From the NCBI RefSeq assembly GCF_964355755.1, contig NC_092677.1, forward strand, positions 6,453,001 through 6,517,000: 64,000 bases of DNA, in the 5' to 3' direction. This DNA comes from Antedon mediterranea (Eukaryota; Echinodermata; Crinoidea; Comatulida; Antedonidae). Below the pieces are notes generated by a model. That model saw nothing but the letters and a program-made list of their open reading frames with translations. It was not told the DNA's origin and did no database searches. Positions within the stretch are counted from its first letter, which is position 1, and each line of letters begins with the position of its first letter. This document shows, piece by piece, positions 3,601 to 63,700 of this stretch. The translations under genes and the position numbers were made by a program.

Positions 3601-6600
3601 TACACTTGCCACTGTCAACATCCCATTTCCTACGCCTATGGATAACAGTAGACTTCCACCTTCTATAGATGTGTTATTGTTAATAGAAAAGCATTAGTTT
3701 CCTTTTTTGTACATGTTGAATTTAATATTTGTGCCCTTTTTTTTTAAAGATTCAGATACATCTACCGACCGAGCTGAAACTTCTAGTCCATCAATAGCCT
3801 CAACAACTTCATCTCCACATACCATCATCAAATTGAGGCCGACCTCAAAGACAGGACGTAAGCGAAAGGTGCGCTGCATGAAATGTCCTGGTTGTCAAAA
3901 TGAAGATGACTGCAGGACTTGCGATAACTGTTTGTAAGTTTGTCATTCCTTGTTTATTTCATTTCCCTCTTGATAGGTCATCAACCATGTACAAGCTTTT
4001 TGATGATGGACCTTTTCATCTTTTACTGTATTATATTCAATGATAGTTTTCTGTTCTCTTTGGATGAATAAATTAATAATTAAATGAAATGAAATTGCTG
4101 GAAAAATTAATCAGAATAAAGTTTTTTTTAGGTATGAGATATTTCCAAACCTTGTAGAATAAAGTGTTAAGTACTTTAAATATTAGAAATGTTTGATGTG
4201 AGATTCTATTGACTTTAAATCAAACTTTTTTTTTATAGAGACAAAACAAAGTATGGTGGTCTTAATAAGAAGAAACAATGTTGCAGGTAATTGTTGTAAA
4301 AGAAATGTAAAAAGATTCGTCTACATTAATTAGTACACTGTATATACTAGTGTACCCATTGCCATACACAAGTGCAGTTGAAAACAAGCATTGATGATGC
4401 CCTGTTAATACAATTGTCTACCATTACCACATTTTTGTAATCAAACTTTTATGAATTCATGCTCACTAGATGCATTTTATCATTTTCTTTAGTGTTTAAA
4501 ATGTTGCTTACATTTTTCTAATGGTTAATATTTTTTCTATAATAGGTATAGGAAGTGCACAAATCCCCAGTTGCCATCTACAATGGTACAGACAGTGTTG
4601 CCGGCAACAAAAAAAAAAGGTAAATTGTATCTTGTTTGAATTGTGTTTGTGGAACCTAACAGACCCTACAATAGTTTTGTTGCTAACGTTTTCCGTCTTC
4701 CGACATTACGCTTTCCACAATTTGTTTCCATTTTTTTCTGTTTATGGCAGGATGGTTTATTATTGTGTTAGTGTCTACTAGTCCTTGTAAGTCTTTCTTT
4801 ATTTGATTCATCCAGTTATTTCTTGGTCTTCCTACGGGTCGTTTTACTTTCCTGTTAGTTTCCTTAATTGTTTGTTTGATTGGGGTATCATCCGGTAATC
4901 TAATTATGTGTCCATACCATTTAGTCTCCTTCGTTTAATTCTTTTACTTCATTCTTCTTGTTTTGTTATCTCGTATATTTTCGTGTTACACACTCTATCT
5001 GTTAATTTAATATCTATCATCTTTCGCAACATTTTCCTGTGATATAGATCTATACTCTCTTGTAATTTTTTGTTTAGTACCCAGAGTTCACTGTTATATA
5101 AGAAAATACTTGCTATGTATGCGTCAAACAAACGGGATTTCACGTCTATAGACATCGTTTTGTGTTCTAGCGACGACTTCAGCTTGTTATATGCCATAGC
5201 TGCTAGTGATTTTCTTCTTTTAATGTCTTTTTCTGTGTCCAAGTTACTACCGAGGTATTTGCATTCTTCCCATTTACTATCGGTGTTTCTTCCTATTAGG
5301 TATTCTTCTGTTTTACTTTCGTTTATCTTTAGATTGAATTCTGCTAATTTCTCTGTTACATTTTTCTTTATTTTAGTTATGTGTTCTTTTGAGTCGCTAA
5401 TAAATGAAATCTCATCTGCATACTGCATCTGGATATTAAGCTGTTGTAGGGGTAGTGGTGTTGTGTTTGCTGATTCGAGTGCCTTTGCTAGGTATAGTGT
5501 GAACAGTATCGGAGACATACAGTCACCTTGTGGTACTCCTAGTGTAGTAGTAAACAATTTTCCTGTCTGTTTTCCAATTCGAACGCTTAATTTTACATTG
5601 TTTATCAAAACTTTCAACATGTGTAGTTCATCATCTTGTAATATATGTGTCAGTATGTCAAATAGAGTATTCCTCCGCACCGTGTCAAATGCACTGGTCA
5701 TGTCAAGTAGTAGTAATATTATTTCGTAGTTAGATGACGCAATTGCCTTTTCTGCTAACATTTTGCATGTATGTACATGTTCGGTAGTGCTTCGTCCTCT
5801 GCGATACGCGGCCTGTGTTACAGGGACATGTTCATCTAATCTGTCGTTTATCCTATTTAGTAAGCATATTGCTAGCATTTTCCTAAGAACCGACAGTAGG
5901 ATGATGGGTCGGATGTTTTTTGGTGGACCTTTTTTCTTGCCTGGTTTCGGTATTGGATGCAATATGCCTTCGTTGATTTCTTTAGGTATGTTTCCTGTTT
6001 TAGCTGTTTGGTTATATATTTCTGCTATGTGGTTAAAAACTTCTGTAGGTGCATATTTTACCATTTCAGAGTATACTTGGTCACTTCCTGGGCTTTTACT
6101 ATTTTTTAAGCATTTCGCTGCTTTGGCAACTTCATCACCTGTAAAGGGAGACTTCATTTCAATAGGTTTAATGTTTTCGTTTATAGGTTTTTCTTGTGAT
6201 TTGTGATAGACGTTTTCAAAGAAATTGCTAATTATTTCTACCTGCTCTTCTTCGTTTGTTGTTATACCGAACTCTGTTTCTACCACAAGTCTTTTATTTT
6301 CGTTAAGTTTTAGGTTTTTTACTGCTTGGTACATTCTTGTTGAGTCATCTTTGAATTTTTCAATTTCAGCTATCTTTTCTTTTAGTGTGTCTTCTTTTTC
6401 TTTATTAAGTTCAGTATGAATATTCTTTATGATTTGATTTCTTTCTTTCCTAAGTTTTGTTTTCTTTGATTTGTCATTTGATGAATTTATGTCGCACCTC
6501 AACTGTTTCTGCTTCTTCGATAACTCTTGTATATATTTATTGTTTGATTTAGACTTTGCTTTCCTGTAACCAGCCACTTCCAATGCTACATTCTGAAAGA

Positions 6601-9600
6601 CTGTCGTTAATCTGGTCCATTTCTCTTGTGGTTCCAGGTCCTGGATGTTTACAGATTGTATACATCTCGATACCTCTCTTTGATATGTTTGTCTGTTTTG
6701 TTGTGCTTGAAGTTTTGACACATCTATTTGTTTGGTTTTCTTAGCGTTACTATTTAATTTATACCATTGTAGTGTTAAAGTTGTCTTGACTAATCTATGA
6801 TCAGTGTATGTTCTCGTACCACTGTATGCTCTTGCGTTAGTGACTAGCTTCATGTGTGAATTCTTAACTAGAATGTAATCGAACCTACAATATACGCTGG
6901 ATAAATATCCCAAGACGCCTGTTAGCATTATAGCATAACTTGTGATAACACTATGTGTTTAGTATTTATTATAACGCTACTAATTCTATTGAGAATAAGA
7001 TCTTTACAAACATTTCTTATATTATCAGAAATACAAAGGGTTATAAACTTTAGCAAGCAACCAGAAGTAAATGATCAGCCAGTGAAGAAGAATAAACCTT
7101 TTGTTGCCAACAAGATCATCAAGAAAGGCCTACGAGAAGTGGTAAGTTGAATATTTGTATAGAATTAACAGATACATAATATAATAATAATAATAATATC
7201 CTGGATTTTATATAGCGCCTAATGTTGTGAAACCTCTAAGCACTGAACATTATTACCCCAGTCATTTTTTTGGGATCAAACATGTATGAAAACATACAGT
7301 ACTCTCACAATGCAGAGTAATCAGCGTAAAGTTGTATCTTGATCTAACCAGGTACTAATTTATACACCTGGATGGAGAGAGGCAAATGTAAGTAAGGATA
7401 TGAGCAATGTTGTGGGAGTTGGATTTGAACTTTGTCGAACGTCCAACACACTGCGCCACTCGTCCTTATAGTCTATGCACTTTGAACGCAGGGGGTCCAA
7501 GCTCACTTATACAGAGTATAGGCACATTTGGCATGGGAGTTCAAGCTGACTAGCACAGAGTCCATGCACACTGCCATGGGGGTCCAAACTCACTGGTGGT
7601 GTACAAGCTTACTGACACAGAGATCAAGCTTACCAACAGCTCACTGCCATAAGGGTCACAAAGTTCAATCCCAATGACAAAATGTAAAGAGCCCAAGCTT
7701 ACCGATACAAGGTCCGATACAAGGTGCTCACTGACATGGAACTCCTAGCCTGGCACAGAAACTAAGTTCATTGATAAAGAGTAAAAGCTCTCTGCCCAGG
7801 TACAATGTGTCTGACAGAGGCATGTTCTATACTGAAAGTTGTCTAGACACCAACAATTCATTCAATTCTTAATTTCATGTAATTTTCCGTTGGTAAACCT
7901 ATTTACTTTTTTTAGCTTTCATCTCGTCAAGAAAAATTTGAGAACACACCTGGTATGCAGCAGTTGGTGTTAAAAAGCAAGATGACCCAGCAAGTGAATG
8001 CAGCCACTCATCGTATTATGCTAGACTACAAGGTACTATAGCCTGGTTTAAAAGTCTGGTTCAAATAAATCTTTCTGGAAATAAAATCTGGTTGAAACCA
8101 AGCCTGGTTTAAATTAAGCCTGATTTAATTCAATTTTTTTTTATTTCGGGAATATCATCCATATTAATAAACTTATAAACAGAAAAAGAAAAACCGTAAA
8201 TCATGTCTGAAGCCTGGTTGAAACCAAATCTGGTTGAAATCATGTCTGGTTGCAATCAAGCTTGGTTGAAACCAAGCCTGGTTTAAATTAAGCCTGGTTT
8301 AAATCATATCTGGTTTAAATCAAACCATGGTTAAAATCATGTCTGGTTGCAATCAAGCTTGGTTGAAACCAAGCCTGGTTTAAATTAGGCCTGTTTTAAA
8401 TCATGCCTGATTTCAATCAAGCCTTGTTGAAACCAAGCTTGATTGAAATAAAGCCTGGTTGCAATCATGCTTGATTAAAACCAAGTCTGGTTTTAATCAA
8501 GTCTGTTTGAAACCAAGCCTGGTTTTAAAAGCTTGCTTTTTCAGAAGGTCCAAAGTTCTGTAATCACAAATAATTTTAGTATTTTATTATAACTTCCTTT
8601 TCTAATTTTATTGATGTATGTATTCCATAGACCGACTGTAGTGTGCTCAATGCATGGCATAAAGGTGTAGCTGTACTATCTTCTGAACCTATGGTGCCAC
8701 GTACTGTGTGCTACCTTTGTGGGAGCAAAGGTCAACATGAGGTATGTTAAGACTTGTTTCTTATCACTTCACTTATTTTGTATTTTTTCTGTCAATCTTA
8801 ATTTCTCATTCATCAGGATCTCACCAAAAAAAAACGCTTTATTCTAAATTGGAAAAAAATAACATTAAATTACCAATTTATATAACCAATTTAGTATTAA
8901 AAAAAAATGGTCTTTAAACTCATCCACAATTGAATAGAAATATAGTATGCAATGCAAATAAAGATAATTGTATGAAATAAATATGTATGTCTTGAACAAA
9001 TATTCTATAAATTATTAATTAACAATTATTTTTTGATAGTTTCTTTATTGCAATGTGTGTTGCGAGCCATTCCATGATTTCTGTTTGGATGAAGAAGACA
9101 AGCCTCTAGAAGGAGAAATGGAAAATTGGTGCTGTCGAAACTGCAAGTTCTGCCATGTGTGCGGTTGCCAAAATAATGTATGTATTTTACAGAGTTTAAG
9201 TATATACAGAAACAACAATGAACATCAGTTGTCTACAACATCAGACCACTCTTTCCAAGTTCTCAAAATGATTATCTCAAAAACATGGAAAATGTTCCGT
9301 TTCTATTTATCATCACATAGTTGTCAAAAGATCTCTGCTTCTGGGAGAGTTGACTGTACTGTATTGTACATAATATTGTCACAATGTTTACACAATACAG
9401 TAGAACCTCCATTTTATGTACGGTACGGGACCGAAAGGCGTACGTAAAACAAGGGATTCGTAAAATCAAGGTTGACCTTAAATTGACCCCAAATAAGTAG
9501 AGATCGTAGGTAGCCGTATTTGCCTACTTCTGTACAGTATGCAGGTGGTCACTAGCTAGGCCTTGCCTAGAATATTCAGGCTAGGCTAGCAGGCCTAGCA

Positions 9601-12600
9601 AGATGTGAGGCCTAACCAGACAAGTACAGTATATACAGGCTGTACGATGTTTAAATAAAGTGTAAAATATAATTGTTTTCTATCAATAAAAACAGTCGCT
9701 GCTTTAGGGGGAATGCACGTGCGTAGCTTGTCCCACAGACAATAGCAGAATTCCTCACACAGCCATGATTGTGACTTTGTGTGCTTTGTTGTTGTTAAAT
9801 TGCGCCCTCAATGTAAGAAAATGATGACGTCATCGGTTATTTTAAGCGTACGTAAAATCGAGGGAACGTAAAACACAGGTTCTACTGTAATACTTATATT
9901 TTCTTTAATAGCTTTTACAATGTAATAAATGCAAGAACACATACCATGCTGAATGCCTTGGACCTAACTATCCTACCAAGCCATCAAAGCGTCGCAAAAT
10001 ATGGGTAAGATTTTGTAAAGAAAATGTTACCATTTCTATGTGTGTATTTAAAAAAAAATTTAATTTTGATTGAGGAAAATAACATGATTTTCGCTTTTTT
10101 CAGATTTGTACAAAGTGTGTTAAATGCAAAAGCTGTGGTGCTACAACTCCAGGTACTGGTAATGCCACATGGTGCTATGACTTCTCATTATGCCAAGATT
10201 GTGGCAAACTATTTGATATGGGTAAGATACTGTATTACTGGATACAATTTGATGGAATATAATGTATAGCATATATGACCTAACCTGGTTAAAAAATTTG
10301 GCGAAAACATGTTCATCCATTATGCGCATACAGAGATATTAGGACATGTTGGTTGCTCCCCACCTCAACAAAGTTTTGATCATTCTAGATCCAGGCGACG
10401 GTTGACGACACATCAAGTGATCTGACCTAAGTCGGGTCGTCGCAAATCAAAAGCTCCCTAATACATTATATATGGCTTTATACCAAAAGTCTTATTTCAA
10501 AAATAATTGGCTGGTACAGTTATCATGGAATTATATTCATTATACAGTAATTGTTTTACCATTGTATTTTAGGTAACTATTGTCCCATTTGCAACCGTTG
10601 TTATGAAGATGATGATTATGAATCAAAGATGATGCAGTGTGGGTCATGTGACACTTGGATCCATGCCAAGTGTGAAGGGTTAACAGGTTAGATTTTATTT
10701 TTTTTATTATGATAAAGACCACATTTATCTGACTGCAGAAATACTGGGTGATTATAGTCTAGGCTTAAGTCCTGGGGTTACACTGTTATACTAGTTCACC
10801 AACGCAGTGTGTGAGCTACAATTGGCAGCACTGACATTACGTGATCCAGGGAGAAGCATGTCCACATTACTGCAATGATTGTTGGGATGGCACTATATAT
10901 AAATATCAATTATTATTGTTACATATATTAGATTGTCAAAGGGTGTCCTATATTACGCAGAATACACAAATATGAATACAATTTATTCTATTTTTTTAGA
11001 TGATTTATACAATATAATGGCTGATTTACCAGAGAACGTTCCATATCTGTGTCCGCGCTGCGATCCAGTCAGGCCAGCAAAATGGATGACGGAGATCATG
11101 GAGGAGATGCAAGCAGGGTTCAAGAATGTTATCACATCGTTGTTAAATTGTAAAAGTGCATATCATCTTATAAAGCCAAAGAAAGTAAGTCAATAATGAA
11201 TAGCTTTTTTGTTGGGAGTGGCACGCCTAATCAACAACATAAACTGTTTTGCCACTCCTTGATACAATCAAGCTAATTGATGTTGTCTCTATGTTTGTAT
11301 AAAATTAATAAAATAATGGTTGTGTTTGAAGATGAGGCCTAATAATGATAGGAAAATCTTGGGTTCATTCTTTAATAGTGAAAATAAGAGTAGTAAATTA
11401 CAACTACAAAAAAATCAAAAACAAATGGCAGCTGTTTATATGGAAAAAGAAATTCTCACGGATAATAGTAATGCCAGTGCAGAAACCAAAGGTATAGAAG
11501 AAATGGAAGTTTCTATTATAGGAAGTGTTGAACCAATGGCGGTAGCACTATCTGAGGATACAGGCAGTATAGATGTAACACCAAACACAGTTATGGAAAA
11601 AGAAATTCTCACTAATAATAATAGTAAAGATTTTTAATGTGCACTTCTTCACCAAAGGTGCTCAAGGCACTTTGAATGCTTAAAATTTTCACCTTAATTC
11701 ATATTAAATACACAATAACATTTCAAATTCAAATTGAGAGGAATTATGACTTTTAGTAAGGTCGATTAAAATGTTGTGTTTTTGGTGATTTTAAAACAAA
11801 CTAGTTTATAAATTGACGAATTGAGATAGGCAGTGTGCCTCAGAGTCGTGGAGCACATGTTTACATGTCTTTGTTTTATATATATGTAGTTTTGTGTAAT
11901 GTTATTTATTGGAAAATAATTGTTTGCAATATCTTATTATTTTAGAATAAATCAAGAAAGGATTTAAATCGAACAGGATATGGTGATGTCCAACGTGAAA
12001 TGCCAACAAGAATTTCACCACGTTTGCATCAGGAAACATCGTCCAGAATTTCTCCTAGATTAGCTGTTTTAAATTCTAACAATAGTTCAGTATTACAAAT
12101 TGCAAACACAACTCTTGCCAATCTTCCCACGTCTCGAATCGTAACAGAACTGTCATCGATTCTGCCTAATATGGAGGATGATGTTATCAAAAATGTCATG
12201 GAAGCAGCAAAATCAGAGGTTGTTGTAATCGTTACAGAAGATGGAGAGATAAATTCGTGCAATATCAAAGATCTTTCTAGTCCATTACTTGCAATTTCTT
12301 CTGCTGATGATAATATTTCGAACAATGAATCAAAAACATCTTTGGAATATAAAACAAATTCATGTACATTTGAGAATAAAAATGAAATTGTATTACCTAA
12401 CGTGGAAAAGAATTGTGAAACGGATAGGAATATATTTGCTGCTTTTCAGAAAAACATTTCGAATGAAAATGATCCAAAGGGGTCAAGTATTGTTGAACTA
12501 TCTGGGCATGCAGAAAGTGTAGTTGTAGCGCCAAACGCAGTGCCTGCAGAAACCAAAGTTGTAGAAGAAATGGAAGTGTCTGTAATAGGAAGTGTTGAAC

Positions 12601-15600
12601 CAATGGCAGTGACATTATCCAAGGATATTAAAAGTGTAGTTGTAGCACCAAACACAGTGCTTGCCGAAACTAAAGGTGTAAAAGAAATGGAAGTGTCTGT
12701 AATAGGAAGTGTTGAACCAATGGCAGTAGCACTATCTGAGGATGCAGGCAGTGTAGTTGTAGCACCAAACATAGTACTTGCAGAAACCAAAGTTGAAGAA
12801 GAAATGGAAGTTTCTGTAATAGGAAGTGTTGAACCAATGGCAGTAGCACTATCTGAGGATGCAGGCAGTGTAGTTGTAGCACCAAACGCAGTACTTACAG
12901 AAACCAAAGTTGTAGAAGAAATGGAAGTTTCTGTAATAGGAAGTGTTGAACCAATGGCAGTAGCACTACCTAAGGATGCAGGCAGTGTAGTTGTAGCACC
13001 AAATGCAGTGCCTGCAGAAACCAAAGGTGTAGAAGAGATGGAAGTTTCTGTAATAGGAAGTGTTGAACCAATGGCAGTAGCACTATCTGAAGATGCAGGC
13101 AAAGCACCAAAGGCAGTGCCTGCAGAAATGGACGTTGAGCTAATGGGGGTATCAGTGGTTATTGAAAAAATGCCAGAAAATGAAAGTATTGACATTACAC
13201 CAGTACCAGTTTCAATAGCTGAAGCTGAAGGAAACATCCTCCCATGTTTGTCTGTTGCAAAATCACCTTTAAATTCAAACATTACTGATGTTGAGATTTT
13301 AAATCAAACAAACTTGGACACATCTGCTAGACCACAAACATCTGGTGTTTCTTCAGCAAACAATAAATCTTTACCCAGTAAAAGTAGAAATGTTACTGAA
13401 AATATAGTTGATGAAGGAAGTAACATAACAATTTCCTTAGATATATCTGAAGTTACTGACACTGCGAACTCTAATATGGCAACCATGGATCCTTTAAGAC
13501 TTGGATTGGATAATCTTGATTTACGTTTGGTCGATAATAGTAAAACATCAATTCTTGTAAACAATTTAGAAAACAGTGTTACGCCTTCTACAGATGTGAA
13601 TAGAACTGAAGTTCCGGATAAAATGTTATCAAAAAACATAGAAAATATTACTAGTGTCAAATCTAGTACAGATTCCGATTTGCCATTTTCAGTCAGCTCA
13701 TTTGGTACATCTGGTATGCCTGCCAATATTTTAGAAGATACCATTGTGGCAAATGACAATCCTGGTCTTCAGTCAGTTTCTTGTACAAAAGATCCTATCT
13801 CAGTTGTACCTGATGTCACTTCAGAAAACCTTTTATTAGATCCTAACTCTCTATCACCAAGCACTTGCACTACTGTTTCTGCATACTCAGATGATGGCAA
13901 TACTTACAACTCGGCAGAGAATACACAACGAAATCTTGAAATGGCAAACAGGGCAATTGACAATGCTTTAGTAACACAGTCATTGTCAAATCATACTCAA
14001 ATCCTCTGTAATCCTGGCATCTGTGATCAGTTCACTTTAAACCCAAGTGTGTGCATCATTCCACAAGATGTCTCGATGCTAGATCTTACATTAGGATTAC
14101 CAGAAGACATAAGTAACCTTATTCTTCAGTCTGAAGCAAGCCTCCAGGAACTCTCTAAAGCTGTATCTGTGAAAGAGAAGACTGAGCGACCATCTAATTT
14201 GGTGATGGTCAAGAATAATGTTGATTCGATGAAGTATTTATCAGTGGTAAGTAGCAGGTTTTGGTTGTGTTTCAAGTGGATAAAATCTTGTCTGTATAAT
14301 GGATCTTGATTAAACTGTTCTACTTAAAATAATTAGCTTATCTTGTCTTGCATAATTTTTCTCTGGTTGTCATGTACATGTTTAGTGGATTTATTGAGAA
14401 TAATCATAAAGTCCAATAATTTGTTTTTAGTCCGATTTCATTGATGACTGTGTAGCCATAATGCAGGAGTCAATATCTAGTGAAACCGTTGAAAATATTG
14501 ATCTTAAGCGCAGCAATCAGATCGTTAGAGAACAGTTTTTGCAAGTAATTGAGAAAATGTTCCCTTGGTGTAACGCCTTGAACTCCAAATGTTGGAAGAA
14601 GAATCATATTTTCCCAGAGTAAGTTATTTTTATGAACTATTTTTATTCTTTACAGTTACCAAATAAACAATAACAATTAAACACTATACTATACTATATT
14701 ACCAAATACACAGGTCAAAAATAATAACCACTTCTGTAAAAGATAATGTCATCATGGATATAATACTGGAGTAAAATATTTATATCGAATTCATTTTTTC
14801 ATGTTTTCTTTAGTGGCATGTTGCCCAATGCCGTTTTGCCACCATATTGTGATCATGAATATGCACAATGGCAACAGAGAATTCTTCCTGCACCAAAGAC
14901 ACCACAACCATCGCCGCTTAAAAAGGTTCATCCGTCTACTAAGAAACCAGCATTAGAAGAAAATTCAGGTACATTGAAATTAGAAATTAGAGTTGTTTGT
15001 TTGTCTCTTTGCCTCATAACAACTCCACAGAACTCCTCTCAATATCTCTTGCAGAAACAAAAGAAAGACTTTGATCAGGATCACTAGTGTAACCAATTGC
15101 TTGAAACAGTGGAGTTGCTTTGTTCTTTTACAAAATGATTAGTGTACACATGCAATCTCTTGCCTCATGAATAATTCATGAGGCATATACAATTTATAAC
15201 CATCAATTAAACATTCCAAAATGGTTAAAAGGAGTGCATACTCCAGGTTCAATTCTGATTCAAAATATCATCATTATTACTTAATATGATACTGATTAAA
15301 TGTAACAAACTTGCTTAAACAGATGTTGATGCATTTGACTTCCCGCTATTGGATGTAAATGCAGAAGATCCTCGTCGGTGTTCACTGTGTGGCCAATGTG
15401 GTGACCACGAGCCTGACCTTGCTGGACGTTTACTTTACATTGGTCAAGATGACTGGATACATATAAACTGTGGACTGTGGTCAGCAGAGGTGTTTGAGGA
15501 GATGGACGGGTCATTGGTTAATGTCCACAGCGCTATATCAAGAGGAAGGCTACTTGTAAATATGTTCATACAAGTTCCTAAGTATAAATATTATATGAAA

Positions 15601-18600
15601 TCAATTTAAGGCAATGTTTCATGAAAATGATTTGCATATAATTAAAATCACTTCCCTGTAGCAAGCCATGACATCTGATGTCACAAAATGGCATGGGTGT
15701 AGGCTATTCAGACATGGCGCACAACTTAAAATTCCTTTCAATCACCAGTGTCCTTGTTTTACAGAGGAAACTACTGAAAGGCACGACGTTATATATTTAA
15801 CTTCATTTCTATTGCATGAAAGTTTTATTTAAACCTTTAATTTTCGTTTTGTACAGCGTTGTGAAGTATGTGACCGTCAGGGCGCAACTGTCGGCTGTAA
15901 CACGCGAGGGTGTCCTGCTAATTATCATTTTATGTGTGCACGAGAAAAGAATGCCTTTTTTCTTGAAGATAAAAAGGTATTCTGTTGGCAACATGGTCAT
16001 CATGCTGACAAAGAGGTAAGATATATGGTTGTAATCAAATTTTTATTTTCTTTTAAGTTCTGTTATTTATTTGTTAATTTCGTAGCTTAAGTTAGTTAAG
16101 ATAAAAGGTACCAAGCTTGATTAGCTTCGGCTATATCTTGGCTACCTTTTGTATTGAAATTGTTTTTGTTTGATACAATAAAGAAGAAAAGAATAGAATA
16201 AAGAAGAATAGCACATTCGTTTATAACTAGAGATGTAAGTACCATAATTTTCTATATCTTTTCTAGCTTGTTGAAGAAGGTCATTTTGCAGTTTTACGTC
16301 GGGTATGTGTCAGTCTTGATAACATGAAGATGAATAAAGTGTTTGCAAAAGGTTTACCACCATCACGAGTGAATGCAATGATTGGATCGTTAACAGTTGA
16401 GTTTTTAGGCCGTTTAGGTCCTCTCTCTGACTGCAAGGAAGCACTTTATCCAATCAACTTTAGGTAAAGAATTGTTATGTTTAGAAGATGCACTAAAGAT
16501 ACATTAACATTATTTTGTTATAGTGGTATCATCTTGGATACATGGCATATTTTTAATCTATTCTTCATGTGTAGCATTTTGGTTATCAGACACTACTTGT
16601 CAACAAAAGGTTTTTGCTGTAGACTTTCTCTATGCACTGACTATTTATAATCTTTATTTGATAGGTTAAACAATGCTGTTTGTATATAAGAACTGTACTA
16701 AGAAAACACTTCATATTAAGATTGTTGAATATTTTATGTGGGATTGATGTATGTTTTAAATGAATGTTTTTAATTGTAATTGTTTTACCATATTTTCTGT
16801 CGAAGAAAACAATTTTTCCATGTACACATTTTATATATGGAACAAATAAAGATTTTATTTGATTTTTACAGGTGCTGTCGTGTGTACTGGAGTACTATCG
16901 ATCCAGGGAAACGATGTGTTTATACCATCAAGATCTTAGAAGTAATTCCAGAAACATCGCCAGGAGTGACTACACTCGTTGAAACCAACAACACATTGAT
17001 ACATAATAATCATGTTATAGCGACTGATATTGTAACAGACATCCCAAGGATGGAAATTGATCCTGTTGCTGATCTTGAAACTCCTGACATCATTCCACTT
17101 GACATCATTCAACCACCAGCTGATGTCATTCAACCACCAGCTGATGTCATTCAACCACCAGCTGACATCATTCAACCACCAGCTGACATCATTCAACCAC
17201 CAGCTGATGTCATTAAACCACCAGCTGATGTCATTCAACCACCAGTTGATTTCAATTGTAGTACAACCTCTGTGAATGAACCAGTAACAGAATGTGTAAA
17301 CAGCAATGCTGACAATCAGAGGTCTGTTAAGAAATTATCAGAACGGGCCTTAGAGGTTTATGAAGCTACTACTGGTAACTCTGTCATGATTGTTGATGAG
17401 GATTTTGTGTTTACCCTTGATGACTCCACAAAGTTGAGCAACAGTTATCCAATGTCCCGTACAGATAGCTGGCGGAAGACTGCGAATATGAAAAGAAGTA
17501 ACTCTTGGGCTGGTGGACAAACAAACTTTCAAACCAGCCAAATCTCTACCAATGAAGAAGTATTGCAACCTATTTCTGGTGATCATTTGATTTTGAATGA
17601 TGTGGTTGATGCCTTGAATAAAGCTGCTGCTAATAATAAGTTAAATCCCACCGAAGATGATAAGACTAACATGCCAATCACCTTGAACAATGGTTCTGCA
17701 ACAGTTCAAATGGTTAACTTAGAAGATACTCAAACTGCACCAGTAACCGAAGCTTATGTCAACATTATCAGAGAGAAAACTGATGTTCAGTCAAATGTTA
17801 TCAAGCCTAATGAAAATGAATATCGCATAAATTCCAAGAAGCAAAGTGCCAATGAAAAGGCTTCAGAAAGTATGTGCAATCATGTGCAACAAGGTCAGCT
17901 AGAGACAAGTAATGAAAACAAGATTCATAATACTATTGAAGAAAATGAACGTAATCGTTCACCAGAAAACTCTGACATTAATCTAAATCAAAGAACTGGA
18001 AGTAACTCACAAGAACAAGAATTGAATAATTGTCCTGACACTTTGTCTGAAGTAATACTAATTAACCAAAATAAGGAAACAAATTGTAGAAATCTTACAG
18101 AAAATTCAGGACAGAAAATGTTGCCGTACGATGTTAACAAGGATTCAGAAAAAAGTGGAAATGTAACTAGTAATGTTGGTAGGAGACCAGAAAATAAAAT
18201 TTCCAAATTATCATCAGAATTAGGTCAAATTCTACCTATATTGATTAAGGATAAACACGGTACTGTAAAAGACAAAGAAGTTAAAAAGCATACTATTGAC
18301 ATCAGTCACCTTCTTAGAAAGAATTATAGAAATAATGCAGTCCGAAAAAATACTGAAAGAATGTCACTAGTAGATATTAAATGCAATGGAGATGCAGAAA
18401 AAGAACAAAGACAGAATCCACAAAGTAAAATAGAATTGAACCGTAGGCCAAACGATTGTAAAATATCAATAAATGATGTGAACAATGCAATTGATGTTGA
18501 TGACAGCAGTGGTGTTTATAAGGAAGTAGATGTTAATTCAAAAGATTGTAAAATATCTTCCGAGAAAGACATTGATGTATGTAAAAATGAAGATGAACCA

Positions 18601-21600
18601 TTTGAATGTATGTATTGCCAGAAGTCATACGTCAAGGAAAGTTTCTATCTTAAGCATATCATGAATTGTAAGCAGAAACAAAATATTTTGGACGATAAGG
18701 ACAAACCTATGGAAGATATTAGTATTGTTGTTACACATACTGAGAATGAGTTAGTAACCAAAGATTCTGATGGACATACGACAGAAAAGAGAAAATACAC
18801 TGATGAACCAGTCATTAGCCCACGGTCAAAAAAGAAATATAAACAGGAAGCAGAAAGGTTAAATTTTGATGAGTTTGTACCTGAATCAAAGCTAGATAAA
18901 TTGGACATTTCCAAACCTGGAAGGAAAAGCTATCCAATGCGAAACACTTCTTCTAGATTGATTAGAATAGCAGCTGAATCTGAACCAACTGAAGAAAATG
19001 AAGAGCTACCATCACCACCAAAGATCACAAAGGATGTGCGAGTAAGCTTATCTCCTGTGGATTTATTGGCTTTATCTAAGAAGATGGAAAATGATGACCC
19101 TGTTCAGTTGGCTAATAGATTAGAGAAAGAGGGTCTTATAGAGCCTATTGTTAGAAAGCGTGGTCGTCCAAGAAAACAACCAACCAATAGTGAAAACCAA
19201 ATGGGAAGTATGGCAGGCGTGGACAAAAGAGAGGAGAAAGAACTGTCGTCTGGATGTGAACAAATTGTAGATGTAGAGGGAGGTGTTTCTACTAGGAGGA
19301 GGTTAAGAAGAAGCTGTTGTGAAAGAAATGTAAAATATTCTGATGAAACGAAAGAAGATGAAATTAAAGAAGATGAAACGAAAGAAGATGAAGATCAGGT
19401 GCAATCTCCACCAGTTAAAAGAAGAAGAGGAAGACCACCACTAAAGAAACCAAAAGATTATAATAGTACAGTTACTGATATTGAAACAAATAATATAACT
19501 AAAAACGCACAAAGTATGAATGTAGAAAATGCAACAAAAGATGGTGAAATTGTAGTTACTATTACCAAAAAAACCAAAGACACTTCGGAATCTGTTAAAG
19601 CAGTACTTGAAAATCAAGATGACGAACTTCAAATAATTGATATATTTAACAAATCTGATAAAATTTTAAATGCAAAAGAAAATGTTGAAACTCCTCTTAC
19701 CACAAATTCTTCAGAAACGAAACTTATCAAACAAAGTTACAGACCAAACATTATGAGAAAACAAGTGAAAGATTGTGGTCTTCAAACAACTCAACAAGTT
19801 TATATGTATGTAAACAAAGATGACAGTGTAAGCAAATTTAAAGAAATAAGGAAGTTGAGCAATGATGGAAAATTACTTACATCAACTGACAACCAGCCTA
19901 AACAAGAACAGGTTTCTTTTGTCACACCAAACTGCAATATAATGCCAACTTCTATTGCTGGGAGTAGTCAAATGTCGCCTGTTATTTGTCCTCAGATTCC
20001 ATCAGTAAACACAGCAGTAAATTTTATCCGAAACTCAAACATTCCAGTTTTAGTACAATCAACAGTTCCTGTTGTAAATGCAGTCACTGTTATGGTTAAA
20101 CCTCTGAACCAAAATGTCACTTCACCAGCTATTTTACCAACAGTTTATGTTAAGGACAACACTCAGCTTTTAAGTCCAGTAAGAAGTCCATCTGGTTGTA
20201 ATTTACAACCATCTGTAATTTTACCCGCTCAACCACAATTGTCCATTTCTCAAGTTGGTCACGTCCAAAGCACAGCAAATCCGTCTATCTTACAAATGTC
20301 TAATAATTTAGTGAGTTCAGCTCCTGTTTTAAATTACACGCCTATTGCACAATCATTTCCAACGTTAGTAAACTCAACTCCAGTATCTGTTGTTTACACG
20401 AGTATTCAAGTACAGCCACAAGCAAATTTGATTAACTCTGTTTCAATGTTTAGTAATCAAACTATTACAAACTCTATTTCTGTGAGAGGACAAAATAATG
20501 TATTTCCCATCACTCCTTTTAATCAAATCCAACCGAGAAATGCAGTTGGTGTGTCCAATGTTTTACAGAGCAAGAACAGCATTCTTTCAAATATGTTACC
20601 TCAAACTCAAGCAGTTTCTGTGAGTTTTGAATCAAATGATAAATCTGGATATTCTTATAAACGAGTGTTTCCAGAAAAGTTTCCAATACCAAGATTTCCA
20701 AGTTTGCAACCAGTTAAGTATGTTCCTCACGGAAGCCATATCATCAAGACCAGTTTAAGTTCAATGAAACCTCATGTACCAACTACTTCTCCATTCTCTG
20801 CCACAAACTCCAATATTCTGAAATCTATTATTCAAAGACCTCTTGCTCCAGTAACGTCCTCACATTTAGTGTCCAATTTAAGTATACTGCAGTCGCAACA
20901 GCAAGGCTCACCTTTGTCAACACAACACTCAAGTTCTGATGTTCTTCGAGCTCTTCAGCGTAAAGTTGCTGCCAGAGCTGTAGAGAGATCTTCTACTCCC
21001 TTTCTTCCAATGGCAAAAAGTCAACAAAACCTGAATCTTGGAAGTCTTCTAATACCTACCGAACGTCCACATCAAGAAGAAGCAACAGTGGCACCACAGC
21101 AGCCTCTAAAAGAGAGTAACTCTGGCAATGTTAAGGTTTCCACAAACAGCTCAGAAGCTAATACCAAGTCAAGTAATCAAGAACCTCCTGTTGTACAAAG
21201 AAAAACAGGTTTGTAGTTTGTTCATTTATGTATTCCGTATATATCTATCATTACGGACACTTTTCAGTGAAATGTAAGGAGGAGTATGTTTTAACGCTTG
21301 ACACCAATAGGGGAAGCTTTGTTGGGCCCTGAAGGCGTCTATTACTGTATTCAGGTATAATATTGTAATGCAGTACAATAGGTTTCAATTTTGAATTCTG
21401 ATTTTTATCCACCAGATGATGAAAGGTTAACTTCACCTGCAGGATTGGTTCACAAACGGAAAGCTCCACGCATACAAAATGTAGCTGAGGAAGAAGAGGT
21501 GATGTCACCACTGTTGGCCAGAATGATGAAAGGTCTAGAAGAAAAAACACTGCCACGACCTAAAAATGAGCCTCATCTTGTGTTTGAGGTCACCAGCGAT

Positions 21601-26603: not shown

Positions 26604-28239
26604 TCACTGCTTAATTTCTTGTAATTTAGTGGGTATTTTGATATTTAAAGTTGATGATTTTTTTATAAATTTGGCACTGGTATCATCTTCTGAAACGGCT
26701 TCAGGAAGGGCGAGTTGAAGTTTATAAAGATCCTCCACTATTAACGAAACGTCGTCCTATCAAAAAAAGAATGAAATCATTTATTTTTATCAAGTTACTT
26801 CTTTGTGATTCTTTAATATTTTTTAATAACAGACCATGTGGAAATCGATATTGGTTATTAAAATCATGAGTTATACTTATCTTAAATAGTGTGCTCATCA
26901 AAAATATTTTTGGAATACTTACTGAAGAAATATCTAACTCGCATTGTCGAACCGAGTTCACGTTCGGTAACGAAATCCTAATGTCAACATGACGTCCTTT
27001 GGTATCACTAACTACTTCTAGGGAATACTCTGGTGCTGCTCTAGTAATGCTAATTTCTTCAATCAATTTTCCTCCATTAATTGGTTCTTTTATTACAGAT
27101 GAATTCAGAGTTATCTCATGTGCCTGTCTGCTATTATTAAACTGTACACCCTCTCCTTTGAAAATGCTCCCTAAGTTTCCGATTAAAGAATCTCCCTTGT
27201 GTTGTGTGTCTGCAGGTCTTGATTCAGTGTCTTTAAATCTCTTGTTGATAAAACTTGTCGCAAGTGTTAAGGGATCACCTTTGAAATTTGAGTCTTTTAA
27301 CTTGGTGTAGTTTCTGTCAAGTTTAAGTTTAAACTGGTCTGTGACATAGTCAAGCGAAAGATTCAACAGCATTCTAGTGGTGTCAGCAGCTTCAAAGCAT
27401 TCCTTTAAAACCTCTGTATTGAATGCTATTGGAATCACTTTATGTTTTTCTGAAAATTAGAAACAAATCAAAGATATCTTTATCCATATCTTCTATACTC
27501 AGTGGTTCATAGGCATATCTGGTGGTGATTTGGTTAAGACACTCGGCATGTAAATACGAGATTATAAGTTCAAATCCCACAGTTTAAAACTGTTTATAGT
27601 GTTTGTTATATTAGATTGCACATATTTAGATGCGACAGGTTTATTCGCTATATATGGCATATGTTTAGGTGAATGAAAAATAACCGATTACACAGAACAG
27701 CACATACTTGTCCCTTCAATCAGTTCTTTCATTTTTCCTGCAATGACTGGTATAGGATCATGGTCTGTTTTAGGCCCTGGAACTCGACTCCAACTGCAGA
27801 TATTAATAAACAATTCACATTGTTTTTCACTCTAGAAAAGAAAACAGTTATACAGTAATAACAAAAAATGGTGTGATTTACAGTGGTGGTACCGGAAGAA
27901 TTAGAAAAATAGGGGGAGGACATGATTTACAGTAAAATTGTAAAATGAAGTGCCGAACGCTGAGGTCTTTTGAATTGCAATTTTTAAAATTTAAAAAGCG
28001 TCCTTCTTGGATCTGTTTATGGCGCAAAAAAGGTATAAGCATTCTACCAAAATTGTTGTCTGGATACACATGCAAGGAGCTGCTGGTGCCTCCTGGTCTT
28101 TGCTCTCTGCTACGTTTTTCTCTATGAATTTTTTATAAGCCTCTGGGTCCGAATCTGCTAGTTCATCCAGCATTGACCAGATGTGCTGGGCTTGTTTCAT
28201 TAATTCATCACTGCCCTCATTGCTGCTACTGCTGGCCAT
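26604..28239 (-). CDS. PIH1D2: PIH1 domain-containing protein 2, four exons
   Basis: PIH1-family adaptor of R2TP-like (RUVBL1/2) complexes linked to axonemal dynein pre-assembly and, in mammals, to the R2SP complex. Exons on the minus strand: 28239-28048, 27831-27708, 27449-26923 and 26756-26604. They total 996 nt, 331 residues plus TGA, close to the human length (315 by memory). The start is MASSSSNEGSDELMKQAQ, followed by the family-typical WSMLDELADSDPEAYKKFI. PIH signature: LFINICSWSRVPGP and IPVIAG (exon 2), VIPIAFNTEVLKEC (exon 3). The C-terminal CS-like domain has PEYSLEV, LPNVNSVRQCELDIS and ends AKFIKKSSTLNIKIP. All junctions keep frame. The partner gene NKAPD1 starts on the opposite strand about 3 kb away. 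Confidence 0.93.
27521..27590 (+). mobile_element. tRNA-like SINE head in PIH1D2 intron
   Basis: GGTGATTTGGTTAAGACACT resembles box A, and AAGTTCAAATCCCAC, about 40 nt later, resembles box B, at tRNA-like spacing. It follows the tRNA promoter layout but does not fold as a complete functional tRNA by eye. Antisense to PIH1D2, in the intron between exons 2 and 3. Confidence 0.5.
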
Positions 28240-49700: not shown

Positions 49701-51275
49701 TTGTATGACTAAATAAAATCCCACCCACTTTAAGCTAAATTCATTCCATTGTACCAAGCAATCCAAGTATAATCCAACCCCTAATTTTTCACAAATGATC
49801 AAGTTTGAATTAAAGTTTTTGTTTTATTTTTTTGTATTAATTTCCCTTATTTATTTCTTCAGTACCCAGAGTGGTTAGAGAACAACGAATCATCTTTAGA
49901 AAAATCAGAATTTGAGAGATACAAAAAACAGCAAAAAATGATGGGTCAATTATGTGACCTTTACGAAAGCGAGAAGTCAAGTGATCGCCAGGAGGTCAAA
50001 CAGCAGAGGTTACTACAGATCATTGAACTTGTACAGCAGGTTATTATTTTTTGTTTTACTAAACATTTATCAAATGACTAATTTACAAGTGGCTGTTAAC
50101 AAAATCTCATACAAAGCATTACATAAGCTGTTCATCAAGTCCCATAATTTGCCAACAATTGTACAGTGCAAGACATGTTTTATCATCATTGCTAATCACT
50201 TTCTATGGAAAGTTCAATGTACAGATACATTAAATCTGTTATCAATGAATACTTTGCAATTTTTTTTTTTAATTCAACGAGAAGAGCATTCCCATCAACA
50301 ATCATTCTTAAAATTTGAAATTTATTTGTTTTTTTGCTTTTCAAGATGGAGTCTCTCGGACAACCACCAAAGGAGTTAGCAGGAGATATGGTTAGTCAAT
50401 GTTTTTATTGTATTCCATCATCATTTATATAATCATAAATGACAGTTTCTCATCCTCATTGTTATTAATAACATCTTCTACATAATTACTTTCATCATCA
50501 TCTTTAACATTTCCTTTATAATTCTCTCATTACAGTATTTATATCCTTTCATAATCATTATTGCCATTTAGCATTATTCTCTTATAATTGACATTAATAA
50601 CATCATTATCATGATCATCAATTCCATAATTATCCTTATCTTTCTTCCTTCTTCTTTCATCATTCTTTATAATCTTTATCATTTATTACATTGTCATAGT
50701 TATCTTTAACCTTATCATCATCATCACAATCATCATTCATCGCATTGTCATTATTATCGTCATCATTATCATCATCATCATCATCGCAATCATCATCATT
50801 TATCGCATTGTCGTCATTATCGTCAACCTTATCATCATTACAATCATCATTTATCGCATTGTCATCATTATCTTCAACCTTATCATTATCATCATCATCA
50901 TCACATTCATCATTTATCGCATTGTCATCATTATCTTCAACCTTATCATCATCATCATCATCACAATCATCATTTATCGCATTGTCATCATTATCTTCAA
51001 CCTTATCATTATCATCATCATCATCACAATCATCATTTATCGCATTGTCATCATCTTCAACCTTATCATCATCATCATAGCTTTTTGAAAACCAAGGTAT
51101 TTTTGTAAAGGGAGGAATTAAGGAATCTAAATATTGTGTGTGTTTTCTGTAAATTACCGCAATGTTGTGCTTACAAATACCATTCCGTCCTCAGCCATTT
51201 GGATTTGACCTTGATGAAAATGGATTGCCAAAATTCCCAGGAATGCCTTCTGGAGAACAGTGTGCCATCATGTGA
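43740..51275 (+). CDS. PEX19: Peroxisomal biogenesis factor 19, seven exons
   Basis: Cytosolic, farnesylated chaperone and import receptor that delivers peroxisomal membrane proteins to PEX3. Exons: 43740-43878, 44547-44701, 45222-45542, 49048-49206, 49863-50039, 50346-50390 and 51195-51275. They total 1077 nt, 358 residues plus TGA (human 299 by memory). Recognised by ELDELLDSVL (PEX3-binding N-terminus), FNELFGSSEVASEATKEFQ, MMQEMMQGLLSKDVLYPSLK, KYPEWLE, LGQPPKELAGDM and the C-terminal CaaX box CAIM, which should direct farnesylation (Met as the last residue). Met codons at 43740, 43743 and 43752 could all start; the first is given. The extra length lies mostly in the linker of exons 2-3. 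The intron 45543-49047 is filled with repeats. Confidence 0.95.
43905..44330. repeat. GGCCTAG palindromic low-complexity island 3
   Basis: Runs of CTAGGCCTAG, TAGCTAGGC and CTAGAGGC begin 27 bp after the first PEX19 exon and fill much of the first intron. Same composition as the islands flanking the PIH1D2/NKAPD1 promoters. Confidence 0.8.
45580..47056. mobile_element. Possible large non-autonomous element in PEX19 intron 3
   Basis: Ends CTGGGCTCGCACT (45580) and AGTGCTACCCCAG (to 47056) are inverted repeats with 11 of 13 matches. Both flanks of the interior contain repeated GGCGAAA / TTTGGCTAAA words (45600-45720 and 46915-47030). It is about 1.48 kb and has no transposase-like frame. The target duplication is not obvious, so this remains a candidate. 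Confidence 0.4.
48001..48104. mobile_element. Palindromic MITE family 1, copy D
   Basis: Starts CTACACTATCAAACTTTATG, with core AATGTGATGTGCCCATATGG then TTTGGGCACATCATACTTTT. The right terminus is lost or changed. It lies in the long PEX19 intron 45543-49047, over 25 kb from the other copies, which shows that the family is dispersed rather than a local duplication. Confidence 0.75.
50741..51080 (+). repeat. TCA-rich microsatellite with 57-63 bp higher-order units
   Basis: In the last PEX19 intron. (TCA)n tracts are separated by a recurring TTTATCGCATTGTCATCATT and TCTTCAACCTTATCATC, giving about five larger units of 55-63 bp. It reads as poly-Ser open frames by chance. It ends about 115 bp before the final exon 51195-51275, which carries the CaaX box. 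Confidence 0.9.
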
Positions 51276-52810
51276 CCAGCAACCTCGGTGAACGAACCAA
51301 CAGATGTGGGTAGTGCCAGAAGTACGGTAGCCCTAAGGTGCCATTGATCAGCTAAAAGGTGGAAATTATGGTGGCTCGTAGGTGCCACCATGTGATGCAT
51401 TCCATTTGATGTGAAATTATTCTGGAGTATAATGATAGAGAATGAAAATCTGAGTGAATTACCGTTTGATATAGTGTACTGTAATAATTAAGATCATAGT
51501 ATATTATTGTGGTTTATTATGTAATATTGTTTTACTTTACAAATTATTTAGGGTATTGATATATTATTTTATTAATAAGAAATTATGATGTCATAATAAT
51601 TATAAATACATTTTTTTATATAAATAAGGCTGATACAGGATTTTAAAGAATATTTTATTTAAAATTGAAGATAAATTTACAAATGTTTAGCATAGTTTGG
51701 ATGAGCTTTGTGGATTCACCAGAGTATAGAACTATGCAGTATTAAAAATGTATTTGAAGAGTGGCAAATGTTTTTACAGCCACATTTGTTATTAAGCAGC
51801 TGGAAAAATGTTGATGGCACCAGAGAACCGGAGCATCATCAAATTTAGTCAGCCAACGCGAAAACTGAACGCTGCCGGATAACAATTGTTTGTGCAACAA
51901 AGAATACAATTCACTTGTTTGTTGTATATCTGAAGAGGTCGCTGCACAGTCAAATACCGGTATATACAAGGGTCAATTCCCTGGTCAAGTCCCGCTAAAT
52001 CCAGCCATTTAAAACCTGATAACCAATGATTACTGTATTGATTTGATTCAAACAGATAACATTTATTTCGACCCTCAACCAGAGGTTTTCATGGTTAGAA
52101 AAAAACGCCGAAATTGAGGATCTTTGACGGTTGTTACAGCATAGTTAATTTGCAGCACAGATATCACTCATGTTAAAAGCAATGTTATAATATTTAACAA
52201 TACATGACACCAAGAAGCTTGGCACGCCGCCAAATTGCCACCATAATTGTTATTTATAGCATTCAATAACGGATTTTCAATTCCAATTTTAACACGTATA
52301 GTATTCTCTATACATCAGTTCTTATCATTTTAAGTACTATCAATAATTAAATACTTTATCTTATGGTAAAATAATTGTAAATCGAAGGTATTATTACATG
52401 AAGAAAGTGTTTGAATGACCGCCAGAACTAGTAACACAGTTCAGTGCGAATAATTGTGTTAAAATTGAGGAATCGGCGGAAATGTTGTATCCTTGTCTCG
52501 CACTAGGAAGCAACGCGTTAAGGCCAATTAACACAGTCAGATGGGTTTTTTTTAAACATTTTCACAAAACGCGGAGCGGACGGGAGAGGTTGAGTGGCAA
52601 CGCCGCGCGCACAGGATAGTTATAGATTGTATGTGGGACAAGCTACGCTGTTTCCGTTACCGCTCACCATCAACACAAACAATTAGACCAACACGTTGTT
52701 AAATAATTACTGACTTTAGAACTTGCTTACCAATCAAAGGGTGCAAATCCAGGACCACAAATATAAACATTACAAAGACCTTAATTTGAAATGAGATAAA
52801 AGCCCTAGTG

Positions 52811-53010
52811 TTGTCTAATGGTAGGCAGTGTGGTCTAATGGTAGGCAGTGTGGTCTAATGGTAGGCAGTGTGGTCTAATGGTAGGCAGTGTTGTCTAATG
52901 GTAGGCAGTGTTGTCTAATGATAGGCAGTGTTGTCTAATGGTAGGCAGTGTTGTCTAATTGTAGGCAGTGTGGTCTAATGGTAGGCAGTGTGGTCTAATG
53001 GTAGGCAGTG
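52811..53010 (+). repeat. 20-bp minisatellite, ten copies
   Basis: TCTAATGGTAGGCAGTGTGG (phase variable) repeated ten times at an exact 20-bp spacing with one-base variants (TTG for TGG; ATAGG or TTGTAGG for GGTAGG). Low divergence suggests recent expansion. Confidence 0.95.
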
Positions 53011-53082
53011 TGTCATGGACAAAATACAGTATTACTTTTTTGGTCCATGGTCTGATATAGAGCCTATCAAGCAGTGTTGATT

Positions 53083-60726: not shown

Positions 60727-63700
60727 GTAAGTCATTTTGATTTATTGTATTCATCATTTTAGTATGTTTTTAGCTATAACAAATCGTTGTCACCGTATTG
60801 GATTTAAAGTACTAATTTATATATTAAACTTATACAGTAATACATTTTTCTTATTATTAATACATACTTCCTATTATTAAATAGTATTTAAAATGTCTTT
60901 GATAATTGTGCTTTATCCTGCCTTGTATTTGGAAAGAAAATAATTAGTTTATAATTGCATTTAAACCGAAACTTATCGGAACTTGGGTATTCGCCAAATC
61001 AAAGATGTTTTAAGCACCTATACATTATTTTAAGTCATGCAAAATTATTACAGTATTGTCACAGAGACACTGTGACTTTGAACAATGACTGCTGGTTTTA
61101 ATACACAGTTGGTGTTCCGTTTTTATGTTTGTAAGACTGTGCTATATCGCTGTAAACAATATTGTCTTTTTTTTGTTACACTGATACAGTATGATAGAAG
61201 CATTATGCGATTCTCGGTATACTGTATCTAAATTTGTCCAATATCATGGGAAAATGCCGTGATAAAGCATAACATGTGATGCATGTATCATAGAAAATAA
61301 TCTAACCCTTCACCTACCTTCCTTGATACAGGCAAGACTGATTCTAGATTAAACAAATGTTATTGGTCCACTTAAAATGGAAATTCATTTTGCTTAGCAT
61401 ATTAAGACAATAAAAATACATCAGTTTGCAAAAACGCTGTAGGCCAATGTTAAAATGAACAAATTATTAGGTATTTAATTTATAATGGAAGCATACAATT
61501 TGTAATTAATTACTGTGACGTTTCTGTTTCACAAAGTGATAAAAACCATTTTAATTATATGCCTAATCAATTATATTCAAATTTCTATTAACGAAAATTA
61601 AAATGTTAATTATTTCCACAAGATTAACAACTGCAATACGTTTCATCGCCTTAATACCATATAGTACAGCGAACTGTTTGTTGAAGTAGGCCTACAGTTT
61701 TGAAAAGTGCACGGTTATCATTCACCTAATTATAGGCAGGCCAAGTATACTTATTATATCTGATTTAAGCAATCGTATATCCATATTACATCTAGATCTT
61801 CTCTTGAGATGATTTAATGAAAGTATGTGTACTTTTATATTTGGAAGTGCCGTATTTTCCCCTTAGTTTTGTAACATGTTTGAGGCTTAGTTTTCGAACA
61901 TGTTTGGAGCCTAGTTTGGGAACATGTTTGAGGCTTAGTTTTAGAACATGTTTGGAGCCTAGTTTTTTAACATGTTTGAGGCTTACAGTAGTTTTGGGAC
62001 ATGTTTGAGGTTTAGTTTTGGAACATGTTTGGAGCCTAGTTTTGGAACATTATTTGAGGTTTAGTTTTGGCATGGAGTAAAGAATGGTTTTGGAACATGT
62101 TTGAGGTTCAGTTTGGAACATGTTTGAAGCCTAGTTTGGAACATATTTGAGGCTTGGTTTTGGAACATGTTTGAGCTTAGATCTCGAACATTTTGGGAGG
62201 TTAGTTTTGGAACATGGTTGGACTCGGTTTTGAAATATGTTTGAGGCTTTGTTTTTTAACATGTTTGAGGCTTAATAATAATTTATTGAAGCTACACCTT
62301 TACACGTTCGTACATGGTGAATTCTTTAAAATAGACAACAAACAGATACAAAATTAATACATCAACTTAGTTTAGGAACATAGGGCTCGATTTTGAAACA
62401 TCATAGCTGTTGACGGCCATAAATAAAACTATGTTTGATTTTTAATTATATCAATATTTTAAAAAGAGGCAATCAAAATTACCCCATTCGTTGATTTGAT
62501 TTAAATATTTAAAACTACTAAAGACAAGAATAAATTATAAAACAACATTACACTAAATCAAGAACTTGATACTCTGAAGTAGGAGCACAGTGTTATCACT
62601 TTTTATGGGACCATTTTTTGACACCTGGATGAAAGAGGAAGATATTAATAACGGTCTCTTTTTTTGTTGTCTTATTATTTGTTTTCTTCATGTTTGATTT
62701 ATTTTTAATTAAGTTGTTTTTTTATCCAAAGGTTAAAACATTTAATAGTCTTTTTTTTCACTGAAATATAATTTGCGAAAGACAAGGTTTGATCAATTAA
62801 TAATGTAATTGTAATAATAACAATAACACCTGGTAGAATTATTTCAATTGAAAATGTGTCTCATCTCGGTAATGTGTTCGTACAAAAGGAAGTCCTTTCG
62901 GCTTTTAAGGGTTAATGACCTGGTTTATTTAGGTGTATGGCCTATTATTATAACTATTATTAACCATTTTGTCTTATGAAGCGCATATAGAAGTAAAATA
63001 TACAACATTAGTATGAATATATCTTATTCTATGCCCAACCGATCACAGGTTAGAAGATTCAAATATAATTGTCGGAAAACGTTCAGAAATTGATTCCACT
63101 GGCAGAGTGTTAAAGGTAGACCTAATGAATAGCAAAAAAACCCCAACATTAATTATGCATACATTACATGAAAGAACAGAACATTAAACATCTCAACATA
63201 ATGAATCATAGCAATACGCTTTTTTTTCATTTAGCCTAAGACAACTAGCTTGGCTAATATACTTATAGATGTACTTGGACATAGTACGTGTAAGGCCTGG
63301 CAGCTGTTGTTTGCCATAAGAGAATAAAAACAACTATTATAAATAATTATCAAATATCGTAGTCGATAAATCCTGTCTTTGTTTACTATATTACTTTGAT
63401 ATGGTCATTGACCCTCGATCAAACATGGATAATGTTTTTACTGTTCGTTTATTCGCATTCACATTATAGAAATGCTAGTTGGATGATGTTTTACTGAAGT
63501 TACTGCAGTAACCGTTTTCAGCACAGAAGAAAGGTACAGAATTGTATACTGTAGCCATGGCAAAACAATAATAGTAACATAATGCATTACATATTCTACC
63601 CTCGCCCTCTACCACACACACACGCACCCATGCATTTACTATAAAAAAGATAAACAGAAATTTTAGTTTTAATATCGTAATTAACTGTAAAATAAACAAA

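What the first reader, a model, noticed from the sequence alone, without database searches (positions are those of the whole stretch)
11946..14246. KMT2 bromodomain is split by a 767-residue exon with a 39-residue tandem repeat
The exon is phase 0 at both ends and sits exactly between conserved bromodomain halves, so the protein would gain a long low-complexity loop there. The 117-bp units are highly similar and a whole multiple of three, which points to recent, frame-tolerated expansion. Known KMT2A proteins have only a short insertion at this position.
Basis: partly seen in the sequence, partly recalled or inferred. Interest (0 to 1): 0.62.

Follow-up and report, generated by a model that had tools for sequence, protein, structure and literature searches.

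The report
Long repeat-bearing loop inside KMT2 bromodomain
In this invertebrate's KMT2A/B-type (trithorax) chromatin gene, a loop that is short and floppy in the human protein appears to have grown to about 750 amino acids, partly by copying a 39-residue unit; it is an unusually large example of a known kind of loop growth, not a new domain.

Summary
Window 11946-14246 is an open, phase-0/phase-0 exon of 767 codons with good splice sites. It carries 5.2 copies of a 117-bp (39-aa) unit. It belongs to a single-copy KMT2A/B (trithorax-type) gene. The interpretation needs four corrections. (1) The exon is not inserted between two complete bromodomain halves: its last ~21 codons align to the start of the conserved second half (helix A region), so skipping it would damage the domain. 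About 746 residues separate the conserved parts. (2) They sit where human MLL1 already has a flexible ZA-loop insertion, which was deleted for crystallisation. The acetyl-lysine-docking residue is also lost (Glu here, Asp in MLL1), so this is enlargement of a known variable loop in a non-reading bromodomain. (3) The array is valine-rich and acidic rather than classic low-complexity; its core [15 protein letters not shown] shows hints of constraint. Other in-frame repeats lie in another exon of the gene. No RNA or related genome was available, so splicing, copy-number variation and lineage range are untested.

The parts
10573..10686 (+). exon encoding most of PHD finger 3
   Evidence: aligns to MLL1 PHD3 (3lqh, 7zey, 2kyu); acceptor ATTTTAG
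11000..11184 (+). exon: end of PHD3, linker and first conserved part of the bromodomain (helix Z, from about 11083), ending ...HLIKPKK, phase 0
11185..11945 (+). intron upstream of the repeat exon
   Evidence: donor GTAAGTCA and acceptor TTATTATTTTAG
11201..11316 (.). interspersed repeat A (many copies in the genome)
11317..11634 (+). open, coding-like block in the intron (106 codons stop to stop, ATG at 11332), holding one repeat unit
11478..11591 (+). displaced repeat unit, 83-90% identical to the four full exonic units, same strand
11439..11623 (+). two copies (11439-11470, 11592-11623) of a 32-nt sequence (MEKEILT...) flanking the intronic unit, spaced 153 bp
11613..11860 (.). interspersed repeat B (many copies in the genome)
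11946..14246 (+). 767-codon exon, phase 0/0
11946..12491 (+). pre-array part of the loop (182 aa, S/N-rich)
12497..13101 (+). tandem array, 5.2 units of 117 bp (39 aa, [39 protein letters not shown]-like)
13102..14183 (+). post-array part of the loop (S/N/L-rich), with degenerate unit-like stretch at its start
14130..14130 (+). first base after a candidate phase-0 alternative acceptor (ACCTTATTCTTCAG) that would skip the array
   Evidence: consensus match only
14184..14246 (+). conserved bromodomain segment [21 protein letters not shown] (helix A region) at the exon's 3' end
   Evidence: aligns to MLL1 QQPLDLEGVKRKMDQGNYTSV
14431..14618 (+). exon with the rest of the bromodomain (helices B and C); the acetyl-lysine docking position is Glu (14482-14484)
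   Evidence: position mapped using PMC3326523

Best explanation
The exon is a constitutive coding exon of the animal's single KMT2A/B (trithorax) gene. It encodes a long, mostly disordered enlargement of the ZA loop of the PHD3-adjacent bromodomain, then the conserved helix A region. Shown: open frame, splice-site sequences and phases, homology on both sides, and the array. Inferred: this bromodomain does not hold acetyl-lysine but braces PHD3, so its ZA loop is free to vary. The loop grew as ordinary loop sequence, part of it by unequal exchange of a 117-bp unit, and only frame-preserving changes survived. One unit (or a slice of old array) ended up in the upstream intron, bounded by interspersed repeats, and seems no longer to be spliced in. 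PHD3 reading of H3K4me3 and its regulation should still work, with the loop as a spacer or docking tether; the constrained unit core is the best candidate for a contact site.
For: Splice sites and phases; 787-codon frame against at most 145 in shuffles; in-frame codon usage of all three exon parts like a separate exon of the gene, z 6-10; MLL1 PHD3-Bromo alignment resuming inside the exon at ERPSNL; MLL1 ZA-loop insertion deleted for crystallisation and Asp at the docking site (PMC3326523); bromodomain supports PHD3 rather than reading acetyl-lysine (PMC8022399, PMC8401916); exonic arrays in this gene all have periods divisible by 3 (117, 21, 15) while its intronic arrays (44, 16/97) do not; pooled dN/dS of exonic units against consensus about 0.5 and a 15-codon core without amino-acid change; post-array part pLDDT about 32.
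Against: No RNA. A phase-0 acceptor-like site at 14130 would skip the array. Simple charge-hydropathy puts the loop on the ordered side, and one of five AF2 models of the array is a confident beta-solenoid; disorder is therefore not shown for the array. The codon test was trained on a disordered-region exon and scores the short conserved exons poorly. The core-constraint test is weak (scan P 0.005, but Fisher 0.078).
Confidence: 0.82

Rival explanations
1. Alternative 3' splice site: the ordinary protein uses an acceptor at 14130, giving a human-like short loop ([24 protein letters not shown]...), and the 2184-bp repeat part is included only in a minor isoform.
For: Acceptor-like ACCTTATTCTTCAG|TCT in phase 0 at 14130; the resulting loop would be about the length of the human insertion (human length from memory).
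Against: Nine acceptor-like sites of this strength occur in the exon, two of them in phase 0, where three would be expected by chance. The skipped part is open throughout and coding-like; the acceptor at 11945 is also good.
Confidence: 0.12
2. The array folds into a beta-solenoid, i.e. the insertion adds a structured repeat domain to KMT2.
For: Best AF2 model of 12492-13205: mean pLDDT 76, blocks of about 80-93 over much of the array, all strands; V-rich units with a conserved core.
Against: The other four models have mean pLDDT 30-47. [quoted passage not shown] No PDB match below E 0.04, TM at most 0.2 among the listed hits. No alignment was available.
Confidence: 0.1
3. The intronic copy at 11317-11634 is a functional cassette exon rather than a stranded relic.
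For: Open frame of 106 codons with coding-like composition, z 4.3; the non-repeat 5' part alone z 2.1; flanking repeat spacing of 153 bp, a multiple of 3.
Against: No donor in the block scores above 1.63 (known donors mostly 3-6), and the only good acceptor is out of phase. Intronic copy against consensus: 9 nonsynonymous and 2 synonymous changes (dN/dS about 1.5), though few.
Confidence: 0.07
4. Assembly artefact: repeat unit number or the intronic copy created by misassembly.
For: Near-identical 117-bp units can be miscounted; no reads were available.
Against: Units carry distinct substitutions, so they are distinguishable, and the array (605 bp) is far shorter than a long read; the intronic copy has its own flanks.
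Confidence: 0.04

Closest known systems
Human KMT2A/MLL1 PHD3-bromodomain cassette (PDB 3lqh/3lqi/3lqj)
   Same: PHD3, linker with conserved Pro, bromodomain; flexible ZA-loop insertion at the same site; no acetyl-lysine docking Asn
   Different: about 746 residues between the conserved parts here, against roughly 40 in human (length from memory); tandem 39-aa array; Glu instead of Asp at the docking position
Human KMT2B/MLL2
   Same: bromodomain between PHD3 and PHD4 that supports PHD3 rather than reading acetyl-lysine (PMC8401916)
   Different: its loop length was not checked; no such array is mentioned in the passages read
Coding minisatellites in disordered regions (a class of tandem repeats)
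   Same: period divisible by three, in frame, units about 83-95% alike, uneven older copy at the 3' edge
   Different: the loop lies inside a folded domain; one unit is displaced into the adjacent intron

Membership tests
KMT2A/B (trithorax-type) methyltransferase | PHD3 followed by divergent bromodomain | tested here: met
   3lqh E 6.5e-48 over PHD3 and both bromodomain parts
KMT2A/B (trithorax-type) methyltransferase | CXXC zinc finger upstream | tested here: met
   PF02008 partial match (first 28 of 48 positions) on the 3698-3934 frame, E 7.9e-5, 23 bits against a cut-off of 26.5; the frame ends inside the domain
KMT2A/B (trithorax-type) methyltransferase | FYRN, FYRC and C-terminal SET | tested here: met
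   PF05964; PF05965 and PF00856 above cut-off
KMT2A/B (trithorax-type) methyltransferase | Taspase1 cleavage site between FYRN and FYRC | tested here: inconclusive
   motif D[GSA][VIA]D not found in the large exon; simple pattern only
Acetyl-lysine-reading bromodomain | docking Asn at the start of the BC loop | tested here: not met
   Glu at the aligned position (mapping)
Acetyl-lysine-reading bromodomain | Pfam bromodomain profile above cut-off | tested here: not met
   16.4 bits against 21.7, with the loop left out of the query, as expected of a divergent KMT2 bromodomain
Beta-solenoid repeat domain | stable coil structure with solved relatives | tested here: inconclusive
   one of five AF2 models only, no PDB match

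The most novel reading that the evidence does not exclude
The KMT2 of this lineage has acquired, inside its PHD3-supporting bromodomain, an array of selectively maintained 39-residue motifs (core [15 protein letters not shown]) that binds a partner or folds, with copy number and an array-skipping splice form tuning H3K4me3 reading.
Probability: 0.08. Interest if true: 0.65.

Novelty: new variant of a known kind. Interest (0 to 1): 0.33.

Why it matters
It shows how far the ZA loop of a bromodomain can be stretched (about 746 residues) when that bromodomain no longer reads acetyl-lysine but braces a neighbouring PHD finger. It also gives a natural test of whether the KMT2 PHD3-bromodomain cassette tolerates a very long, possibly copy-number-variable tether. 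The stranded intronic unit records how a coding repeat can be lost to, or copied into, an intron. It is of interest mainly to people working on KMT2 evolution and repeat-driven loop growth.

Tried and rejected
Exon as an optional insert between complete bromodomain halves: rejected, its 3' end aligns to conserved bromodomain. Whole-exon segmental duplication as the source of the intronic copy: no homology outside the unit and its 32-nt flank (shuffles equal or better). Known domain in the exon: Pfam gives only sub-cut-off matches (phage tail tube, CUE, radical SAM N) and PDB nothing. HCF-1 motif, Taspase1 site, LXXLL and Win motif in the exon: none. Exitron: no internal donor above score 3. 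Species identification: COX1 not in the assembly, SSU rRNA search failed twice. Literature on KMT2 loop length across invertebrates: nothing found. No relatives of this genome are held, so cross-species comparison was impossible.

Full report
Observation. The exon 11946-14246 is preceded by GCAATATCTTATTATTTTAG and followed by GTAAGTAG, is 2301 bp long, and keeps the frame of exons 11000-11184 and 14431-14618 on both sides. The frame is open for 787 codons, whereas 200 shuffles of the same bases reached at most 145. Trained on a separate exon of the same gene, in-frame codon usage of the pre-array, array and post-array parts stands 6 to 10 standard deviations above background of the window, and the other two forward frames do not. 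The model reflects disordered-region composition and scores the short conserved exons poorly, so it supports coding but does not replace RNA. The array is 12497-13101, 117 bp x 5.2, 89% matches.

Which gene. The window lies on contig 8 of a 354-Mb, 18-contig animal genome; the species was not identified. The gene carries CXXC, PHD fingers, a divergent bromodomain, FYRN, FYRC and SET, hence KMT2A/B (trithorax) type. The PHD3-bromodomain query finds only this locus in the genome.

Where the insertion sits. A query of PHD3 plus bromodomain, with most of the loop left out by me, matches the human MLL1 PHD3-Bromo crystal construct 3lqh (E 6.5e-48) in two pieces: query 1-100, ending at ...HLIKPKKN, and query 120-202, starting at [23 protein letters not shown]. 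The second piece begins inside the repeat exon. About 746 residues separate the conserved parts. In 3lqh the two pieces meet directly, and Filippakopoulos et al. [quoted passage not shown] In the window the aligned residue is Glu. Reviews state that the MLL1 and MLL2 bromodomains do not read acetyl-lysine but support PHD3 (PMC8022399; PMC8401916). The site is thus a known variable loop, here extremely enlarged.

Repeat evolution. The exonic units differ by small numbers of substitutions. Against their consensus they show, summed, about 11 synonymous and 19 nonsynonymous changes, dN/dS about 0.5. Fifteen successive codons ([15 protein letters not shown]) have no nonsynonymous variant among units; a scan test gives P 0.005, while the contrast with synonymous variants gives only 0.078. 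Weak constraint on the core is likely but not proven. Two further in-frame arrays lie in the FYRN-containing exon of the same gene (21 bp x 7.1 at 17105-17254; 15 bp x 3.4 at 19342-19392), and all three exonic periods are multiples of three, unlike the arrays in the gene's introns (44 and 16/97 bp). In-frame repeat growth is a habit of this gene's loop and linker parts, not a peculiarity of the bromodomain.

The displaced unit. It is flanked by a 32-nt direct repeat spaced 153 bp, and sits in an open frame 11317-11634. That block lies between two interspersed repeats that occur in many places in the genome, 11201-11316 and 11613-11860. Outside the unit and its flank there is no homology with the exon. 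The block has no in-phase acceptor of normal strength and no donor of normal strength, and the unit's changes are mostly amino-acid changing (9 to 2). A relic of formerly coding or copied array DNA stranded in the intron is the best reading; the numbers are small.

Structure. The post-array part is predicted without confidence (pLDDT 32), compatible with disorder. One of five single-sequence AF2 models of the array is a confident all-strand solenoid and the other four are not. AF2 is known to give unrealistic beta-solenoids for near-perfect repeats (PMC11795689), and no solved structure matches. I do not accept the solenoid, but it should be tested: the array is V-rich and not classic low complexity.

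Alternative splicing. No internal donor reaches a normal score, so the array cannot simply be removed as an exitron. A phase-0 acceptor-like site at 14130 would give a short, human-like loop. Such sites are no more frequent than chance, so this is a lead only.

Verdict. This is a new, extreme variant of a known kind of loop insertion in KMT2A/B bromodomains, probably a mostly passive tether. Cross-species comparison and RNA, neither available here, would decide how interesting it is.

Noticed in passing
window 11478-11591 (with 11317-11634): A displaced unit of the coding repeat in the upstream intron, in an open frame between two interspersed repeats.
   Followed up: yes
window 17105-17254 and 19342-19392: Two more in-frame tandem repeats (21 bp x7, IIQPPADV-like; 15 bp x3.4, DETKE) in the large FYRN-containing exon of the same gene.
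   Followed up: partly
window 4949-6958, minus strand: 669-codon open frame with a reverse transcriptase domain (PF00078, E 3e-31), an apparently uninterrupted non-LTR-like element inside the KMT2 gene.
   Followed up: partly
window 52807-53012: 20-bp x10 array AGTGTGGTCTAATGGTAGGC, resembling a tRNA D-arm stretch; ARAGORN finds no tRNA in the window.
   Followed up: partly
window 61862-62274: 24-bp x17 degenerate minisatellite (CTTAGTTTTGGAACATGTTTGAGG).
   Followed up: no
window 26722-27456, minus strand: 244-codon open frame with a partial PIH1 domain match (PF08190), a neighbouring gene on the other strand.
   Followed up: no
window 50678-51078: CAT-rich array with long open frames on both strands, an effect of the repeat composition.
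   Followed up: no
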